A DNA stretch of 44,255 nt from a virus. Where the stretch lies: IMG/VR virus record IMGVR_UViG_3300032397_000026, positions 1 through 44,255 of that record. One strand, 5' to 3'. Position numbers and translations under genes: made by a program. Below the pieces are notes generated by a model. That model had not been told where the DNA came from, did no database searches, and saw nothing but the letters and a program-made list of their open reading frames with translations. Below are positions 11,974 to 43,412 of the stretch, one piece after another (positions within the stretch are counted from its first letter, which is position 1; each line of letters begins with the position of its first letter).

Positions 11974-12993
11974 ATGAAACGTGCTAAAAATATTAAACGA
12001 GTTTCTAAAAAAATTAATACATGTGGTTGTGAGTGTGGTGGATACTGTCTTGGCAAGTACATTAATGGTCATGCTAACAAAAATAAGAGACAGTCTGTTG
12101 AGTGGAAAAGAAAAAGATTTGAAAATCTGAATACAGTTAAAAGCTGGTTTAAAAAAGGTGATAAATCCTGGAACAGTAATCTGACTAAAGATATAGATGA
12201 CAGAGTTAAACGTAATGCAGAAAAATGTAGAAAACTTAAGAGAGTAAAAGAGATAGAAATAATAGATGGGAAGATTGTAGAACATAAATATACTAAAGAA
12301 GTCCGCGATAGATTGGGAGAAAATAGAAAGGGAGAAAACAATAACTTTTACAATAAACATCATACGGAAAAATCTAAACAGAAATATAGTGAAACAGTGA
12401 AAAGTAGACCAGAAGAATGGCATGCAGCTAAAAGTGAAAGATTTAGTAAAACTATTTCTGAAAAATCAAAAGAATGGCATTATAAAAAGTGGGAAAAATT
12501 CAGGGAAACAAGAAAAAAGAATGCAAAACCAGCTTGGAATAAGAATAAGGAACTTTCTGAAACTCATGTACGACACATCTTTGAAGCCAATGCAATGGTA
12601 CCAAATAAAACTGAGATATTGATAGATAATGATATTCAGAAGAGCTTTCTTGATATCTTTAAGTTTGTAGTTGGTGATAATAAAACATTTGTAGGTGGTA
12701 GATCTCCAGACTGGATTTGTAAATCTAAAAAACTAATAATTGAGATGTTTGGGAATTATTTTCATGGTCAGAAATTAACAGGTCGAACCAAAGAACAGGA
12801 AGAGAAACAAAGAACAGATCATTTTGCTAAATATGGTTATAAAACATTAATTATCTGGGAATCAGAATTGAAAGATATGGAAGCAGTCAGATTCAAAATT
12901 CAGAGTTTTCTGGAATCCGAAGGCATTTTATTTAATATAGATGAAGTAAAATCTGAAATTGAGAAGGAGCTGAATAATGAAAAAGAAACTTGA
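11974..12993 (+). CDS. Free-standing EDxHD (Vsr-like) homing endonuclease with NUMOD3-type DNA-binding motif
   Basis: 339 residues, ATG 11974 after AGGGATGAGG. The N terminus has CGCECGGYC ... GHANK, a cysteine-rich motif common on phage homing enzymes. About residues 115-140 contain GENNNFYNKHH-TEKSKQKYSE, a NUMOD3 DNA-binding motif. The region about 210-310 has SPDW, LIIEMFGNYFHG, then KYGYKTLIIWESEL, the core of the Vsr-like EDxHD nuclease fold used by I-Bth0305I-type enzymes. It is highly basic, unlike its structural neighbours, and overlaps the next gene by 17 bases. Its place right after the intein-bearing adaptor gene suggests that it cuts an intein-less allele nearby; that target is inferred. 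Confidence 0.85.
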   Translation: MKRAKNIKRVSKKINTCGCECGGYCLGKYINGHANKNKRQSVEWKRKRFENLNTVKSWFKKGDKSWNSNLTKDIDDRVKRNAEKCRKLKRVKEIEIIDGKIVEHKYTKEVRDRLGENRKGENNNFYNKHHTEKSKQKYSETVKSRPEEWHAAKSERFSKTISEKSKEWHYKKWEKFRETRKKNAKPAWNKNKELSETHVRHIFEANAMVPNKTEILIDNDIQKSFLDIFKFVVGDNKTFVGGRSPDWICKSKKLIIEMFGNYFHGQKLTGRTKEQEEKQRTDHFAKYGYKTLIIWESELKDMEAVRFKIQSFLESEGILFNIDEVKSEIEKELNNEKET

Positions 12994-35164: not shown

Positions 35165-37699
35165 TTGTTACATTTTCATATTGACAATCTTTATACTAGA
35201 GTAGATAAAAAATTAGCTACAAAAGAAGAGCTAGAACAGATTCACAAAATTCTATCTGTTCGTGTCCCAGGTTATTTCTATAGTCCTCATTTTAGACGAG
35301 GATTGTGGGATGGTTATAGAAGATTTTTTAATTTATTAACAAGTACATTTTATACAGGATTAATTGGGTATGTAACATCTAAAATTGAATTTCCTTACGA
35401 AATCATAGATGATCGTGTTTTAGTTGAGCATAAAAATAATATACTCTCTTTAAATGGAATTGAATTAAGAGATTATCAGATTAAAATGATTAACGAAGCG
35501 GTATCTACAAAAAGAGGAATAATTTCTGCTCCACCAAATGCTGGAAAAACAGAAGTAGCTTGTGGTATTATACAAGTACTAGGTTTACCTACTAATTTTT
35601 TTACTCATAGAATTACACTTATGAAGCAAACTAAAGCTAGAATGGAACAGCGTTTAGGTGTTAAAATTGGTATGATCGGTGCCGGTATAAAAGAAATAGA
35701 AGATATTAATGTTTTATCTGTTCCGTCAATAGCTAAAAATCTTAATGATTCAGAAATTAAAGAAATGCTTAGTAGGTCTAAAGTTGTAATATCGGATGAG
35801 TGTTTGCCATATAATAGTCAAGTATTAGTTGATATCGATAAAACTGTAGAAATTGGTAATATTGTTGAAAATTCAATTAATAATTTATTTAAAGTTGAAT
35901 ATGTAATTAGTTATAATTTAGAACTTAAAAAATATGAAAAAAAGAAAATTGTAAGATATATAAAAATTTTAGGTAGTAATCCTTGGTATAAAATTTTTTT
36001 TAATAAAAATAATAAAGAAGTTTCTTTTAAATGTACTGGAAATCATAAAATTTATGTTAAAAATCGAGGTTATATTAAAACTAAAGACTTATGTGTTGGT
36101 GATGAAATAATTTTTAATGAATCTAATTCTAAAAAGATTTTTTTATGTAAGTTTTGTGGAAAAGAATTTTTAACAGGATCTAGTTTGGGAGGTCATCATT
36201 CTCAACATAATTTTAATAAGAATTATTTTTTACTGGGAAAATGGTTAAAAGAGCATGGTTATCCTATACAAGATCCTAAAATTAAAAAACGTATTTTTTG
36301 TAAGAGAAGTAAAAATGCTAAATATAGAAAATATTTAAGTGATAGAATGAAAATTAGTAATCCATCTTTTGATCGATTAACTGTTGAAAAATCTAGAAAT
36401 TCTAATAGATTGTTTTACGAAAATAATCCTGATAAACTTCTAGAACGAAAGAAGAATTTTATTAGTGCACATAGAAAAAGAAAATTTCCAACTAGACCAG
36501 AAGCTATTATAAAAAATTTAAAAATTGAAAAATTAAAATATACTGGAGATGGAGTATATTGGATTGAGTTTAAAATAGGATCTTATAGTTTTCGGCCTAA
36601 ACAAAGACATAAATGTCCAGATTTTATAGTCGAAGGACAAAAAAAAGTTATAGAAATAGGGAATACTTCATATTGGTATTCAAAAGAAAAAATTGAAAGT
36701 TTGATTGAAGCTTATAGAACGAATGGGTATCAATGTTTATTTATCGGTGATGATGAACTTAGTGATATTGAAAATATTAAAGAAAAAATTTTTGCTTTTA
36801 TGTTTAATCATACATATAAAGTTACAAAAATAAAGGAAAGAGCAAATAATAGAATACCAAAGTATATTTATAATCTTGAAGTTGAAGATAATCATAATTT
36901 TTTTGCAGATAATATATTAGTATCTAATTGCCACCATATTTCGAGTAAAACTTTTGAATCCTGTTTAAAGGCCTGTAATACATCATATTATAGATACGGA
37001 TTGTCGGCTACAGCTTTACGTAAGGATGAAATTTCTAATCTAATAGTTAGAGGATTAACAGGAGATGAGATTGTTTCTGTAACTAATAGAGAGTTGATTG
37101 ATGCAGGAATTTCTGCTTCACCTACTGCATATTTACACTATGTTAGTGAACCAAAAATTCCGGGACATTATACGTTTGATCAGGCGTACGAAAAGGGAAT
37201 ACTAAATAATCTAGAAAGAAATAGATTTATTGTTATGTCAGCTAAAAGATTTGTGGAGCAAGGAAAGTCTGTTTTTATATTAGTATGGCGTATTGCTCAT
37301 GGAGAAGTAATTTTAAAAATGGTAGAAGATATAGGATTAGAAGTTGAGTTTATAAGTGGTGGGAGAGATAATGTCCAGGATGCTCTGGATAAGTTTAAGA
37401 AAAAGAAATTAAGATGTTTAATATCTTCAACCATTAGTGACGAAGGGTTGGATGTTCCTGCTATGGATGTATTAATTATGGGAGTTGGTTTTAAAGCACC
37501 GTTAAAAACTATTCAGAGAGTAGGAAGAGCATTAAGAAAAAAATCAGGCGAAAATGTAGTAACTATTGTAGATTTTGTTGATGCTCATAATAAAAAATAT
37601 CTTTATAAGCATAGTGAAGATAGAGTGAAAGAGTATCTAAATATGGGAATGGAAATTTTTGAAGTTGATGAAACTTGGGAAAGGATTATTACTGTTTGA
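35165..37699 (+). CDS. SF2 DNA helicase (UvsW-like) interrupted by an intein
   Basis: 844 codons from TTG 35165. Motif I is SAPPNAGKTE. Motif II is split: VVISDE, then the intein, then CHHIS, so the spliced protein has DECHH. Motif III GLSAT, motif V ISSTISDEGLDVPA and motif VI QRVGRALRKK follow. Removal of residues 213-588 leaves a 468-residue helicase of the size and style of phage UvsW-like enzymes, which remodel branched DNA. Without splicing the ATPase site would be broken. The gene heads the replication module. Confidence 0.88.
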   Translation: MLHFHIDNLYTRVDKKLATKEELEQIHKILSVRVPGYFYSPHFRRGLWDGYRRFFNLLTSTFYTGLIGYVTSKIEFPYEIIDDRVLVEHKNNILSLNGIELRDYQIKMINEAVSTKRGIISAPPNAGKTEVACGIIQVLGLPTNFFTHRITLMKQTKARMEQRLGVKIGMIGAGIKEIEDINVLSVPSIAKNLNDSEIKEMLSRSKVVISDECLPYNSQVLVDIDKTVEIGNIVENSINNLFKVEYVISYNLELKKYEKKKIVRYIKILGSNPWYKIFFNKNNKEVSFKCTGNHKIYVKNRGYIKTKDLCVGDEIIFNESNSKKIFLCKFCGKEFLTGSSLGGHHSQHNFNKNYFLLGKWLKEHGYPIQDPKIKKRIFCKRSKNAKYRKYLSDRMKISNPSFDRLTVEKSRNSNRLFYENNPDKLLERKKNFISAHRKRKFPTRPEAIIKNLKIEKLKYTGDGVYWIEFKIGSYSFRPKQRHKCPDFIVEGQKKVIEIGNTSYWYSKEKIESLIEAYRTNGYQCLFIGDDELSDIENIKEKIFAFMFNHTYKVTKIKERANNRIPKYIYNLEVEDNHNFFADNILVSNCHHISSKTFESCLKACNTSYYRYGLSATALRKDEISNLIVRGLTGDEIVSVTNRELIDAGISASPTAYLHYVSEPKIPGHYTFDQAYEKGILNNLERNRFIVMSAKRFVEQGKSVFILVWRIAHGEVILKMVEDIGLEVEFISGGRDNVQDALDKFKKKKLRCLISSTISDEGLDVPAMDVLIMGVGFKAPLKTIQRVGRALRKKSGENVVTIVDFVDAHNKKYLYKHSEDRVKEYLNMGMEIFEVDETWERIITV
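35801..36928 (+). other. 376-residue intein with Vsr-like (EDxHD) endonuclease and C2H2 zinc finger
   Basis: The intein begins with Cys (CLPYNSQVLV). It has TGNH at residues 79-82 as block B, block F IYNLEVEDNHNFFADN, and ends NILVSN before extein Cys. Terminal Asn is present; the usual penultimate His is Ser. The inserted domain has no LAGLIDADG motif. It has a C2H2 finger (Cys116, Cys119, His132, His136) and a nuclease-like core: RPEAI (233-236), KCPDFIVEG, KKVIEIGN, then NGYQCLFIGDDEL. That is the Vsr/EDxHD pattern, as in the free-standing enzyme at 11974. The segment is visibly more AT-rich than the flanking helicase, fitting transfer. Confidence 0.85.
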
Positions 37700-39095: not shown

Positions 39096-40403
39096 TTGGT
39101 AGAAACCTACGTATTTGATGAAGAGTTTGAATTAAAACTACTAGCATTTCTTGTTCGAGATAAAAGCTTTTACTTTAATTATAATGCTGTAGTAAAACTT
39201 CAATATTTTGAAAATCAGATGTATAGAGATATTTATTCTATAATTTCAGAGTATTACAAAAATTACGGCATTTCAATTACTAAGGATGTTTTAAAAACAG
39301 AAATTTTACGCACTTTAGATAAGTTAAAAAGTGAAGAGGTATATCAAGAAAGATGTTCTAGTTATGACGAGTTGCTAGAGTTGCTGTTTCTATGTGAACT
39401 ACCACCTGAATCCTATACTGCAGATGTTATTGTTAACCACGCTAAACGTCAGGAATTAAAAATACTGTTATTAGATATAGGTAAAAAGATAGGATCAGGA
39501 TCTGTTGTAGATATAAAGAATCTTACTATGTCTTTATCCGAGGTAGATTCTCTTGGATCTTCTATGAGTTTGGGTTATGATTATTTTTCTGATGTGGTAT
39601 CTAGGGTGTATTCCAGGGATGAAAAGGCAGATAATGTAGTTAGTACTGGATTTAAAAAATTAAACAGGTATCTTGGTGGCGGTTTATCTGGTGGAGAGTT
39701 GGGGTTAGTTGTGGGGCCTCCTAGTCGTGGTAAAACTGCTACACTTGTAAACATTTCTGTGGGCGCACTTTTGGGAAAAAGTAATGTGATATACTTTGTT
39801 CTGGAGGGTGGTGTAAATGATATAGCTATTAGGTTTGATATGAGGTTATCACGCTTAACTAAAGATGAGATTGTTTCTAAAGCATCACAGGTATGCGATA
39901 ATGTTACCTATTTTTCTAAACTGTTTAAATCAAGGTTAATTATTCAAATGTTTCCTACAGAGAGTGCATCTGTTAAAGAGATAGATGATTTTTTAACTCA
40001 TAAAGAGCTTTCAGATGGATTTATTCCGAATTTAATTGTAATCGATTATCTTAATCTTTGTAAAAGAAGTAATGCTAGAGAAGATATTTGGATAGGAAGA
40101 AATTATAGAGAGGGCAAGGCATTGGCTGTTAGAAGAAATAAGCCTGTGTGGTCTGCAGTGCAGGCAAAAATGGGTGCCTTAAAAAATGATGTGGTTACTG
40201 GTAAAGATATTGCTGAAGCTACAGGAAGAATTTGGGCAGATGCAGATGTTATTTTAGGACTATGTCAATCCGAAAGAGAGGAGCGTGAGGACATTCCTCA
40301 AATGCGATTTTATTTAGGTAAAAATCGTAACAGGGCGGCAAAAAAAGTTATACCAGTAATGTTTAATAATCATGTTATGCTGATTGAAGAACAAGTCCTA
40401 TGA
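39096..40403 (+). CDS. DnaB-like replicative helicase
   Basis: 435 residues from TTG 39096, behind GGAAGGTGTAAC. The N-terminal helical domain (EFELKLLAFLVRDKSFY) is DnaB-like. RecA-type core: TGFKKLNRYLGGGLSGGELGLV, Walker A GPPSRGKT (about 206-213), VIYFVLEGG, Walker B LIVIDYLNL (about 311-319), then FYLGKNRNR. It would unwind DNA ahead of the fork, loaded by the upstream ATPase and partnered by the downstream primase. Confidence 0.88.
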   Translation: MVETYVFDEEFELKLLAFLVRDKSFYFNYNAVVKLQYFENQMYRDIYSIISEYYKNYGISITKDVLKTEILRTLDKLKSEEVYQERCSSYDELLELLFLCELPPESYTADVIVNHAKRQELKILLLDIGKKIGSGSVVDIKNLTMSLSEVDSLGSSMSLGYDYFSDVVSRVYSRDEKADNVVSTGFKKLNRYLGGGLSGGELGLVVGPPSRGKTATLVNISVGALLGKSNVIYFVLEGGVNDIAIRFDMRLSRLTKDEIVSKASQVCDNVTYFSKLFKSRLIIQMFPTESASVKEIDDFLTHKELSDGFIPNLIVIDYLNLCKRSNAREDIWIGRNYREGKALAVRRNKPVWSAVQAKMGALKNDVVTGKDIAEATGRIWADADVILGLCQSEREEREDIPQMRFYLGKNRNRAAKKVIPVMFNNHVMLIEEQVL

Positions 40404-41371: not shown

Positions 41372-41445
41372 CAAAAATCATAACCTTTTTTATCTGTGAA
41401 AAACAGCCTAAAAAATAAAAAATAGCCTAAAAATTTCGAGTTTAT

Positions 41446-41478
41446 TATAGAAATGTCTATATTTCTATATTATTTTTG
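41446..41478 (+). terminator. Candidate AT-rich terminator after the replication genes
   Basis: TATAGAAAT (41446-41454) and ATTTCTATA (41461-41469) form a perfect 9-base stem with loop GTCTAT, followed by a T-rich tract. The stem is AT-only, so termination strength is uncertain. The surrounding 41372-41540 stretch is very AT-rich and has AGCCTAAAAA twice; an origin of replication near the primase gene is also possible, but no iteron array is seen. Confidence 0.4.
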
Positions 41479-41539
41479 TAACTATTTGATTTTATTGATG
41501 TATTTTTAGGTAAAAAACACGTTTTTAGCAATAATTTGC

Positions 41540-41568
41540 TTGACATTCTATGTCTTATACTATATAAT
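41540..41568 (+). promoter_or_regulatory. Consensus sigma-70 promoter
   Basis: TTGACA (41540-41545), exactly 17 bases, TATAAT (41563-41568): a perfect match to the primary sigma factor consensus, pointing rightward. Expected start of transcription is near 41575. It should fire without phage factors, so the genes to its right are probably expressed early. Confidence 0.8.
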
Positions 41569-41706
41569 TCATTTAGTTCATTGATAATTGAATAGGCGGT
41601 TGGTGAAAGGAAGAAAATCCCTTTTCCCTTAAAGCCTTAAGCTTCTTCCTCCTAATGCTCAGAAGAGTTCAATGGGAGGTTAGCATAAGTCCAAATAAAA
41701 GTCCTA

Positions 41707-42066
41707 ATGCCGAAAGGTAAGCAAGATACGGATTTTAATTTGGTTGCTGGACAAATTGGGAAGTGGCATTTTTTTTAAGAGGGTAGTATCACTGAGTAAC
41801 CAAACGTTCTATGGATATCCCAAGATAAAAAGAGTTCAGATGAAGTTATTCTTTATGATAAGGGATGGGTGGTAGCGGCACTCAGAAAAAACGCAGGTTT
41901 TAAATAACCGAACTCCAGTAGCAAGGTTAAGTCATTGGATTAAAGATGCTAATGCTAAGCACGGCTCGAAGAAATTTGAGAGTGTGACCCTTATGCCTAA
42001 CGGTTCGATGGGGATAGCTTTTGGAGGACAGAGACTTTTTGAAAATATTTTTTCTTTGGCGAAATA
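41707..42066 (+). pseudogene. Possible broken ORF or structured RNA downstream of the promoter
   Basis: No intact gene lies between 41575 and 42196. From ATG 41707 a protein-like reading (MPKGKQDTDFNLVAGQIGKW) can be followed to TAA 42064-42066 only by changing frame at three homopolymers: T8 near 41769-41776, A5 near 41826, A6 at 41885-41890. The joined reading has about 120 residues, ending SVTLMPNGSMGIAFGGQRLF. There is no ribosome binding site before 41707. Since other genes here are intact, this is decay or chance rather than general sequencing error. The alternative is a long structured RNA: stems such as GGAAGAA/TTCTTCC (41609-41650) and CTTAA/TTAAG are visible. Confidence 0.3.
41988..42014 (+). 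repeat. 27-base direct repeat, copy 1
   Basis: CCCTTATGCCTAACGGTTCG and the 7 bases after it recur exactly at 42074-42100, 86 bases apart. Read as protein, both copies give LMPNGSMG, but in different frames. Could be a duplicated gene end or a repeated RNA element. Confidence 0.85.
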
Positions 42067-42073
42067 AACTAAG

Positions 42074-42100
42074 CCCTTATGCCTAACGGTTCGATGGGGA
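42074..42100 (+). repeat. 27-base direct repeat, copy 2
   Basis: Exact second copy of the element at 41988-42014. Downstream of it a short frame continues for about 20 codons to TAA at 42169-42171, without a ribosome binding site. Confidence 0.85.
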
Positions 42101-42196
42101 GAACCAAAGAAAGAAAAAGATACAAAAACGAGTCCTCACGTAAGAAAGCGCTGGCACAATATAAACTTTAAATGAATGACTTGAAAGGAGTGATGA

Positions 42197-42316
42197 GTGT
42201 TTGAGCTTGGCCCGAATTACCCGAACATGAAAAATGTGGGGCTCATCAGAGAATTGCTACTTGCCGGGATGGAAACGATCAGGCAAAAGCAGCCAGGGCT
42301 GAAAAGAGCTGCATGA
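42197..42316 (+). CDS. Small protein, 39 residues
   Basis: GTG 42197 follows AAAGGAG (42184-42190) with a 6-base gap, the same arrangement as the small genes downstream. Product begins MFELGPNYPNMKNVGLIREL and ends GLKRAA; helical and basic. No homology recognised. Good ribosome binding site and gene-like composition, but the length leaves doubt. Confidence 0.45.
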   Translation: MFELGPNYPNMKNVGLIRELLLAGMETIRQKQPGLKRAA

Positions 42317-42345
42317 TAAACCTTAAAAAAATAGGTTAAAAATAA

Positions 42346-42365
42346 GATGATGAGATCATCTTTTT
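42346..42365 (+). terminator. Candidate intrinsic terminator
   Basis: GATGAT and ATCATC form a 6-base stem with loop GAG (42346-42360), followed by TTTTT. It lies after the 39-residue gene and before the next ribosome binding site. A 57-codon frame starting at ATG 42350 crosses it (ends 42523) and lacks a ribosome binding site, so I prefer the terminator reading. Confidence 0.35.
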
Positions 42366-42491
42366 CGTCGATGAACGAAACCCTTGTAAGGTTGACGAAC
42401 AACCTAATGGGGTTGGAACCAAAACGGAAGCCTCCACGATGGCGGTTCTGGTTAAAACTAATTCCGAAAAAGATTGAAAAGGAGATTATAT

Positions 42492-42677
42492 ATGATGAGG
42501 AAAGTTATGAAAAAGATGGCTAGAGAAATTGGTGTAAAGGTTGCTGCAAGCATTCACGGTTCTATGGTAATTGGTAAGTATCAAGGGAAAGCTAATGGAA
42601 AAAACTTGGTAGAGTATTGTGGAAAGGTTCATAAAGTTTCTCCTCAGCAGTGCCACTTTTCAGCAAATCATGGATAA
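42492..42677 (+). CDS. Small basic protein
   Basis: 61 residues from ATG 42492, seven bases after AAAAGGAG, which decides the start over an upstream in-frame TTG. Sequence MMRKVMKKMAREIGVKVAAS ... NGKNLVEYCGKVHKVSPQQC, basic with two cysteines. Its stop lies at the edge of the first copy of an 83-base repeat. Possibly DNA- or host-protein-binding; unknown. Confidence 0.6.
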   Translation: MMRKVMKKMAREIGVKVAASIHGSMVIGKYQGKANGKNLVEYCGKVHKVSPQQCHFSANHG

Positions 42678-42758
42678 AGATTTCTGTAAAGGAAGCTGAA
42701 AAACTTTTTCTTACAGAAAAGTACGGGGAAGACTATGGAGAAAAAGGAGAATAAAATG
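42676..42758 (+). repeat. 83-base direct repeat, copy 1 (orphan gene end plus ribosome binding site)
   Basis: Identical to 42860-42942. This copy holds the 3' end of the 42756-42938 gene (KISVKEAEKLF ... GEKGE) without the rest, plus the AAAAAGGAG and ATG. It now supplies the start signal of that gene. A recent duplication. Confidence 0.9.
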
Positions 42759-42938
42759 TTTCAAGATTCAGCAGATCATGGATATGTTCTTAGCGAAGAA
42801 GGTGTAGACGAAGGAATAAACGCAGAATGGATTAGAATAGTTGAATTATCTAAAAAAGAAAAGATTTCTGTAAAGGAAGCTGAAAAACTTTTTCTTACAG
42901 AAAAGTACGGGGAAGACTATGGAGAAAAAGGAGAATAA
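42756..42938 (+). CDS. Small acidic protein
   Basis: 60 residues from ATG 42756 behind AAAAAGGAGAATAAA; an in-frame ATG at 42735 belongs to the repeated gene end. Acidic, MFQDSADHGYVLSEEGVDEG ... EKISVKEAEKLFLTEKYGED. Its last 25 codons are the part duplicated at 42676. Unknown function, early-gene style. Confidence 0.6.
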   Translation: MFQDSADHGYVLSEEGVDEGINAEWIRIVELSKKEKISVKEAEKLFLTEKYGEDYGEKGE

Positions 42939-42942
42939 AATG
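42860..42942 (+). repeat. 83-base direct repeat, copy 2
   Basis: Second exact copy, 184 bases from the first. It covers the gene end, TAA, ribosome binding site and the ATG of the next small frame at 42940. Confidence 0.9.
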
Positions 42943-43056
42943 CAACAAAGAAAGGACTCTCAAGAGAAAGAAATGCCCCTATGGGGCAGAATAAAAAAGA
43001 AAGGAGACACGATGAATGGAAGAGTTAACTTTTTTAGAAACAGAATTTATTTATAA
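42940..43056 (+). CDS. Possible small protein, 38 residues
   Basis: ATG 42940 has the duplicated AAAAAGGAG; the frame ends at TAA 43054-43056. Product MQQRKDSQEKEMPLWGRIKK ... is very basic. A strong hairpin (TGCCCC/GGGGCA, loop TAT, 42974-42988) lies inside it and the next gene begins within it, so it may be only a leader. Confidence 0.35.
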   Translation: MQQRKDSQEKEMPLWGRIKKKGDTMNGRVNFFRNRIYL

Positions 43057-43180
43057 TGACAAAAAACAAGATTTCAAAAATATGGAATGGAATGAAGAAG
43101 ACGGAAGTTTAAATGAGGAAGAATCTTTCTGGCTTTTAAAAGAAACCGTAAAAAAAGAAGAAAGGAGATCAATGGCATGA
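43016..43180 (+). CDS. Small acidic protein, 54 residues
   Basis: ATG 43016 follows AAGGAG (43001-43006) by 9 bases; frame ends TGA 43178-43180, overlapping the next ATG. Sequence MEELTFLETEFIYNDKKQDF ... EERRSMA, rich in Glu. Typical of tiny early phage proteins; no function assigned. Confidence 0.55.
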   Translation: MEELTFLETEFIYNDKKQDFKNMEWNEEDGSLNEEESFWLLKETVKKEERRSMA

Positions 43181-43365
43181 ATGAGAATGAGACAATATTA
43201 ATTTCCAGGAAATTTTATGCGGAGAGAGTGAAAGGTGAATTGATTAAATTAGAAAAATACGCATGGGATATTCTTGATGTTAAAACCAGTGGGGAGAGGG
43301 AGGATTTAGCTCAAAAAATATTGAGCATAAAAGAGAATATTTCTCAATGGAAAATACGTTGCTAA
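43177..43365 (+). CDS. Small helical protein, 62 residues
   Basis: ATG 43177 overlaps the previous TGA (ATGA), with AAAGGAG at 43161-43167. Product MNENETILISRKFYAERVKG ... ENISQWKIRC is helical and charged. Translationally coupled to the previous gene. Unknown function. Confidence 0.6.
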   Translation: MNENETILISRKFYAERVKGELIKLEKYAWDILDVKTSGEREDLAQKILSIKENISQWKIRC

Positions 43366-43412
43366 GGATTAATAGGTAGAAACTTTACAAATAAAAATAA
43401 AAGGAGAAAACT

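What the first reader, a model, noticed from the sequence alone, without database searches (positions are those of the whole stretch)
35801..36928. Intein splitting a helicase DECHH box and armed with a Vsr-like nuclease
Seen: the intein sits exactly between DE and CHH of motif II, has Hint blocks A, B and F, terminal Asn, extein Cys, and Ser instead of His before the Asn. Its central domain lacks LAGLIDADG and shows a C2H2 finger plus PD-F ... VIEIGN ... GYQCLFIGDDEL. Known: most large inteins carry LAGLIDADG or, less often, HNH enzymes; EDxHD enzymes are known as phage intron-type homing enzymes. Inference: a fusion of intein and EDxHD homing nuclease, a rare type, with the ATPase inactive until splicing.
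Basis: partly seen in the sequence, partly recalled or inferred. Interest (0 to 1): 0.85.

Follow-up and report, generated by a model that had tools for sequence, protein, structure and literature searches.

The report
Phage helicase intein with Vsr-type nuclease
A phage DNA helicase gene is interrupted by a self-splicing protein insert (intein) that carries, in place of the usual LAGLIDADG homing enzyme, a zinc finger plus a relative of the rarer Vsr/EDxHD DNA-cutting enzymes, a combination so far known only as separate neighbouring genes; the cutter has lost a conserved active-site residue, so it may or may not still work.

Summary
Confirmed: ORF 35165-37699 is a UvsW-type SF2 helicase with an in-frame 376-aa intein (35801-36928) exactly between DE and CHH of motif II. 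It has all splice-junction residues and no LAGLIDADG or HNH domain. A C2H2 finger and a ~110-aa nuclease core sit at the standard endonuclease position. By sequence alone the core's best PDB match is I-Bth0305I, the EDxHD/Vsr prototype (phmmer 5.6e-5; 28.8 bits vs 13.7 for the best of 20,000 shuffles). An AlphaFold model agrees, though I-Bth0305I was in its alignment. Corrections: the EDxHD signature is incomplete. Glu, Asp and a second Glu are kept, but the invariant His is Tyr and the conserved Lys segment is deleted, so activity is uncertain. The Ser-Asn end is ordinary: 9 of 26 inteins compared at DE|CHH have it. Other inteins there are LAGLIDADG, mini or split; only this one is EDxHD-type. 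The Hint domain groups with phage-G-like inteins while the helicase does not (p-AU 0.0008), and the intein is the most AT-rich 1,128 bp of the window: horizontal transfer. In the literature I could search, I found no contiguous intein-EDxHD fusion. New variant of a known kind.

The parts
35165..37699 (+). UvsW-type SF2 helicase ORF with in-frame intein (TTG start, AGGTGA upstream)
   Evidence: phrog_16 DNA helicase 4.5e-76
35165..35800 (+). N-extein: helicase N domain, Walker A (PPNAGKT) up to DE of motif II
35801..36928 (+). Intein, 376 aa, Cys1 to Asn376
   Evidence: lowest-GC 1128-bp stretch of the window
35801..36112 (+). Hint N part (intein aa 1-104, includes blocks A and B)
   Evidence: alignment with mini-inteins L026/L036; AF2 and Foldseek to inteins
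36146..36208 (+). C2H2 zinc finger C-x2-C-x12-H-x3-H (intein aa 116-136)
   Evidence: sequence; zf-C2H2_6 E 2e-4
36209..36484 (+). Basic, mostly helical linker of unassigned function (intein aa 137-228), presumed DNA-contacting
   Evidence: AF2 secondary structure; no Pfam match
36485..36814 (+). EDxHD/Vsr-like nuclease core (intein aa 229-338): Glu234, Asp274, Glu285 kept; Tyr293 where the family has His
36815..36928 (+). Hint C part (blocks F, G), ...NHNFFADNILVSN
36929..37699 (+). C-extein: +1 Cys-His-His of motif II to motif VI (QRVGRALR)
11974..12993 (+). Free-standing NUMOD3 + DUF559 (EDxHD/Vsr) homing endonuclease gene in the same phage, distant relative of the intein nuclease

Best explanation
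A class-1 intein of the phage-G/jumbo-phage lineage sits in motif II of this phage's UvsW-type helicase. Cys1, the block B His, Asn376 and Cys+1 are all present, so it should excise itself and rebuild the DECHH box, giving the active ATPase (inferred). Between its Hint halves it carries a homing-endonuclease domain related to the EDxHD/Vsr family (C2H2 finger, helical linker, PD-(D/E)XK-like core), probably gained by capture of a free-standing phage endonuclease gene (inferred). The intein entered this helicase by horizontal transfer at the conserved DE|CHH site (shown by tree conflict; composition agrees), as homing would do. Whether the present nuclease still cuts is open: two positions conserved in the family are changed or lost, so it may be past its active phase.
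For: Intein. Nuclease kinship: single-sequence phmmer to 3r3p 5.6e-5 and 7.4e-6; native I-Bth0305I core vs 20,000 shuffles 28.8 vs 13.7 bits; Foldseek top PDB hit 3r3p, prob 1.00, TM 0.75 by target, with no LAGLIDADG or HNH structure among the listed hits. Same-phage free-standing EDxHD gene. Horizontal transfer: Hint groups with phage G, L026, L036, L037 (99/97), helicase data reject that grouping (p-AU 0.0008); intein GC 22.4%, GC3 8%, window GC 34.3%. Insertion at the usual endonuclease place between the N and C Hint parts, the conserved place for intein endonucleases (PMC6801210).
Against: His conserved in 75/75 cores is Tyr and the segment with the Lys conserved in 74/75 is deleted, so the nuclease may be dead or not a typical EDxHD enzyme. 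A profile dominated by Hef-type EDxHD enzymes does not score the intein (E 1.3). The AlphaFold alignment contained I-Bth0305I, so the fold match is not fully independent. No intein-less close relative of this virus was found, so homing site and recency are indirect. The clade test was post hoc.
Confidence: 0.8

Rival explanations
1. The insert is a decayed endonuclease of the same family: the intein is now a splicing-only element, and the domain is kept only because it must stay in frame or helps Hint folding.
For: His to Tyr and loss of the Lys segment, both conserved in 75 family cores; long end branch of the window's Hint.
Against: Glu, Asp and second Glu of the core and a complete C2H2 finger are intact; no stop or frame damage over 1.1 kb; composition and tree point to movement.
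Confidence: 0.45
2. The core is a PD-(D/E)XK nuclease of another family (for example restriction-like or VRR-NUC) that only resembles I-Bth0305I, so the EDxHD label is wrong though the class is right.
For: Weak hits to VRR_NUC (4qbl) and Tox-REase-7; missing EDxHD His.
Against: phmmer and Foldseek both put 3r3p first by a wide margin.
Confidence: 0.15
3. The insert is a LAGLIDADG or HNH intein endonuclease, ordinary for inteins, too diverged to recognise.
For: Ten of 21 inteins at this site match LAGLIDADG_3.
Against: No Pfam match to either at E<=10; model topology and Foldseek top hit are Vsr-like.
Confidence: 0.03
4. In-frame insertion that does not splice; the phage does without this helicase.
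For: Splicing untested; a DnaB-like helicase is also present (39096-40403).
Against: Complete set of splice residues, exact DE|CHH site shared with many other inteins, helicase motifs intact on both sides.
Confidence: 0.05

Closest known systems
I-Bth0305I (EDxHD prototype, group I intron in recA of Bacillus phage 0305phi8-36; PDB 3r3p)
   Same: Nuclease core: Glu, Asp, IE(V/I), YW, GY..L.I.DDELxDI, helix and strand order
   Different: I-Bth0305I is intron-encoded and has YWHS and the Lys; here the domain lies inside an intein and has YWYS with a shorter loop
'Fractured gene' split inteins with free-standing EDxHD/Vsr genes between the halves (Dassa et al. 2009; paper not held, known from memory and from citations in PMC10448857 and PMC12350094)
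   Same: Phage intein combined with an EDxHD-family nuclease
   Different: There the intein is split and the nuclease is a separate gene; here one continuous reading frame
DE|CHH helicase inteins of phage G (split), L026 and L036 (mini), Bacillus phage KKP_4048 and L024/L038/L046 (LAGLIDADG), archaeal XPB-type inteins
   Same: Identical insertion point, Cys1, Asn end, +1 Cys
   Different: None seen with a C2H2 finger or EDxHD core
Free-standing phage endonucleases with finger/NUMOD3 + DUF559/Vsr core (window ORF 11974-12993; L116; BFVD A0A6J5NKI7)
   Same: DNA-binding module followed by a C-terminal Vsr-like core
   Different: Free-standing genes; the His is kept in the window ORF and in L116

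Membership tests
Inteins (class 1) | N-terminal Cys/Ser, block B TxxH, C-terminal Asn, +1 Cys/Ser/Thr, Hint fold | tested here: met
Inteins (class 1) | Protein splicing activity | not testable with these tools
   needs expression
Inteins (class 1) | Endonuclease inserted between N and C Hint parts at the conserved place | tested here: met
   site described in PMC6801210
EDxHD homing endonucleases | Sequence kinship to the I-Bth0305I catalytic domain | tested here: met
   but a broad Hef-type profile gives only E 1.3
EDxHD homing endonucleases | Vsr-like fold | tested here: met
   with the caveat that I-Bth0305I was in the alignment used for the model
EDxHD homing endonucleases | Complete conserved active-site set including the His | tested here: not met
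   Glu234, Asp274, Glu285 present; His position is Tyr293, Lys segment absent. Filed as a divergent relative, not a full member
EDxHD homing endonucleases | Site-specific double-strand cleavage of the intein-less allele | not testable with these tools
   needs biochemistry
LAGLIDADG or HNH intein endonucleases | LAGLIDADG or HNH motif/profile | tested here: not met
Fractured genes (split intein + separate EDxHD gene) | Gene broken into separate ORFs | tested here: not met
   single open frame 35165-37699
UvsW-type SF2 helicases | ResIII and Helicase_C domains, motifs I, II, VI | tested here: met

The most novel reading that the evidence does not exclude
First contiguous intein whose homing enzyme is an active EDxHD/Vsr-type nuclease with a zinc finger, using an altered (His-less) active site, and which has homed between distant phage lineages at the helicase motif II site; it would be the fused counterpart of the fractured-gene arrangement.
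Probability: 0.35. Interest if true: 0.75.

Novelty: new variant of a known kind. Interest (0 to 1): 0.57.

Why it matters
It indicates that EDxHD/Vsr nucleases, so far described free-standing, in introns, or as separate genes lodged in split inteins, can also be fused within a contiguous intein. The DE|CHH site now offers, in related phage helicases, empty, mini, LAGLIDADG, EDxHD-type and two kinds of split intein at the same residue: a natural series for testing how inteins gain, swap and lose endonucleases and how split genes arise.

Tried and rejected
First pattern scan of viral contigs had a one-base spacing error and gave only a chance hit (repeated correctly). Alignment A2 was too diverse for a collection scan. 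Tblastn of the intein, of the nuclease core and of the free-standing endonuclease P0001 against 50,697 phage records found nothing. The GYxxLxIxDDEx scan returned mostly chance hits but also I-Bth0305I itself (L139) and L116. A search for EDxHD genes near other intein-bearing helicases (L230-L237) was negative. Rejected: LAGLIDADG/HNH reading; Ser-Asn as a splicing defect; assembly artefact. P0001 as direct donor of the intein nuclease: 32% identity over 73 residues, but one of 20,000 shuffles scored higher, so only distant kinship at most. Dassa 2009 and Taylor 2011 are not held in the library.

Full report
Observation. ORF 35165-37699 (+) encodes 844 aa; residues 213-588 (nt 35801-36928) are an intein between DE and CHH of helicase motif II. 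Pfam gives ResIII, Intein_splicing (1.1e-12) and Helicase_C; PHROGs call it a DNA helicase (4.5e-76). Intein-less phage relatives have DEAHH here. A second contig of the same virus is 99.9-100% identical over the shared 36.8 kb.

The site. A DNA pattern for the block F/G end followed by Cys-His-His found 29 viral and 57 genome stretches; many are true helicase inteins at the same DE|CHH point, in phages and in archaeal XPB-type helicases, the rest chance matches. They are LAGLIDADG type (10 of the 21 members scanned match LAGLIDADG_3), mini-inteins (L026 152 aa, L036 147 aa, L034, L035, L050), or split: in Bacillus phage G the N half is in gp221 and the C half in gp223, and in the 181.8-kb contig of L037 the halves lie 3.3 kb apart on opposite strands.

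The insert. Aligned to the mini-inteins, the window intein has about 230 extra residues after the N-terminal Hint part and before the C-terminal part, the known endonuclease place (PMC6801210). It begins with a complete C2H2 finger (C116, C119, H132, H136) and ends with a core that keeps Glu234, Asp274 and Glu285. Single-sequence phmmer against PDB gives 3r3p, the I-Bth0305I catalytic domain, at 5.6e-5 for the whole intein and 7.4e-6 for the core. The native I-Bth0305I core (read from L139, a 218,948-bp record that I take to be phage 0305phi8-36) scores the intein at 28.8 bits; the best of 20,000 shuffles reaches 13.7. AlphaFold (mean pLDDT 67, about 90 in most of the last third) gives helix, strands, helix, strand, helix; Foldseek's first PDB match is 3r3p (E 4.2e-4, probability 1.00, TM 0.75 by target), with no other protein below 0.1. 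I-Bth0305I was in that alignment, so the sequence test is the more independent one. In the full-intein model the Hint part matches inteins and the core again 3r3p.

Active site. In 75 aligned EDxHD cores, taken mainly from 80 viral loci, Asp, Glu and His are invariant and a Lys nearly so. The crystal 3r3p differs from the native sequence by D-to-A and H-to-A, which suggests that these two are catalytic and were changed on purpose. The intein has Tyr at the His position (YWYS for YWHS) and a deletion over the Lys segment. It is therefore a divergent relative that fails one defining feature of the family, and its activity cannot be assumed. A profile dominated by Hef-type enzymes does not recognise it (E 1.3), while a smaller nine-sequence profile does (E 0.0013, best shuffle 0.033).

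Mobility. The Hint tree places the window with phage G, L026, L036 and L037 (99/97). The helicase tree places those four together (100/99) and the window apart, near Herelleviridae-type helicases; holding them together is rejected (p-AU 0.0008), and on the Hint data a window-L025 grouping is rejected. The grouping was named after seeing the trees. The intein is the most AT-rich 1,128-bp stretch of the window (GC 22.4% against 34.3% for the window and 30-33% for the exteins; GC3 8%). Together: horizontal arrival at a conserved site, as homing would give. The same phage carries a free-standing NUMOD3 + DUF559 endonuclease at 11974-12993, so genes of this family are present in this genome.

Mechanism. 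Shown: anatomy, site, kinship of the core, conflict of the intein and helicase trees. Inferred: splicing restores the DECHH ATPase box; the finger and helical linker bind the uninterrupted helicase site and the core cuts it, with repair copying the intein in; the domain came from a captured free-standing gene. Open: whether the enzyme is still active.

Literature. Reviews list EDxHD as one of six homing families, typical of phage enzymes (PMC3943268; PMC6083498); intein surveys report mainly LAGLIDADG (PMC5050341, PMC5784728, PMC7765530); a split PolB intein with a separate HNH gene is known (PMC6892783); distant EDxHD/Vsr relatives occur in phage group II introns (PMC12350094). No paper found describes a contiguous intein with an EDxHD core; the two founding papers (Dassa 2009, Taylor 2011) could not be read here, so priority is not proven.

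Verdict. New variant of a known kind.

Noticed in passing
window 11974-12993 (+): Free-standing homing endonuclease gene, NUMOD3 (6e-7) plus DUF559/EDxHD core, between a tail-fibre gene and ORF 12977; no relative found apart from the overlapping contig of the same virus.
   Followed up: partly
L230 (contig IMGVR_UViG_3300010163_000005) 174-1148 (+) and 4458-5441 (-): Naturally split helicase intein at the same DE|CHH site whose two halves lie on opposite strands about 3.3 kb apart; would need trans-splicing of separately transcribed genes.
   Followed up: partly
L003 1489-4121 (Bacillus phage G gp221-gp223): Helicase split by an intein at DE|CHH with a 73-aa ORF between the halves; the record's annotation names no intein.
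   Followed up: yes
L014 707-1960 (Staphylococcus phage Twillingate) and L016 (Enterococcus phage phi EF14H1): Inteins at a second site of the same helicase family, in Walker A (GGK|T).
   Followed up: no
window 42676-42758 and 42860-42942: Two identical 83-nt direct repeats ending in a ribosome-binding-site-like GGAG and ATG, in a 2-kb stretch 41372-43412 without ORFs of 80 aa or more.
   Followed up: partly
L109 1-16548 (continuation of the same virus beyond the window's right end): Ligase-like, AAA-type, PAS-domain and radical-SAM-like ORFs by eye; not annotated here.
   Followed up: no
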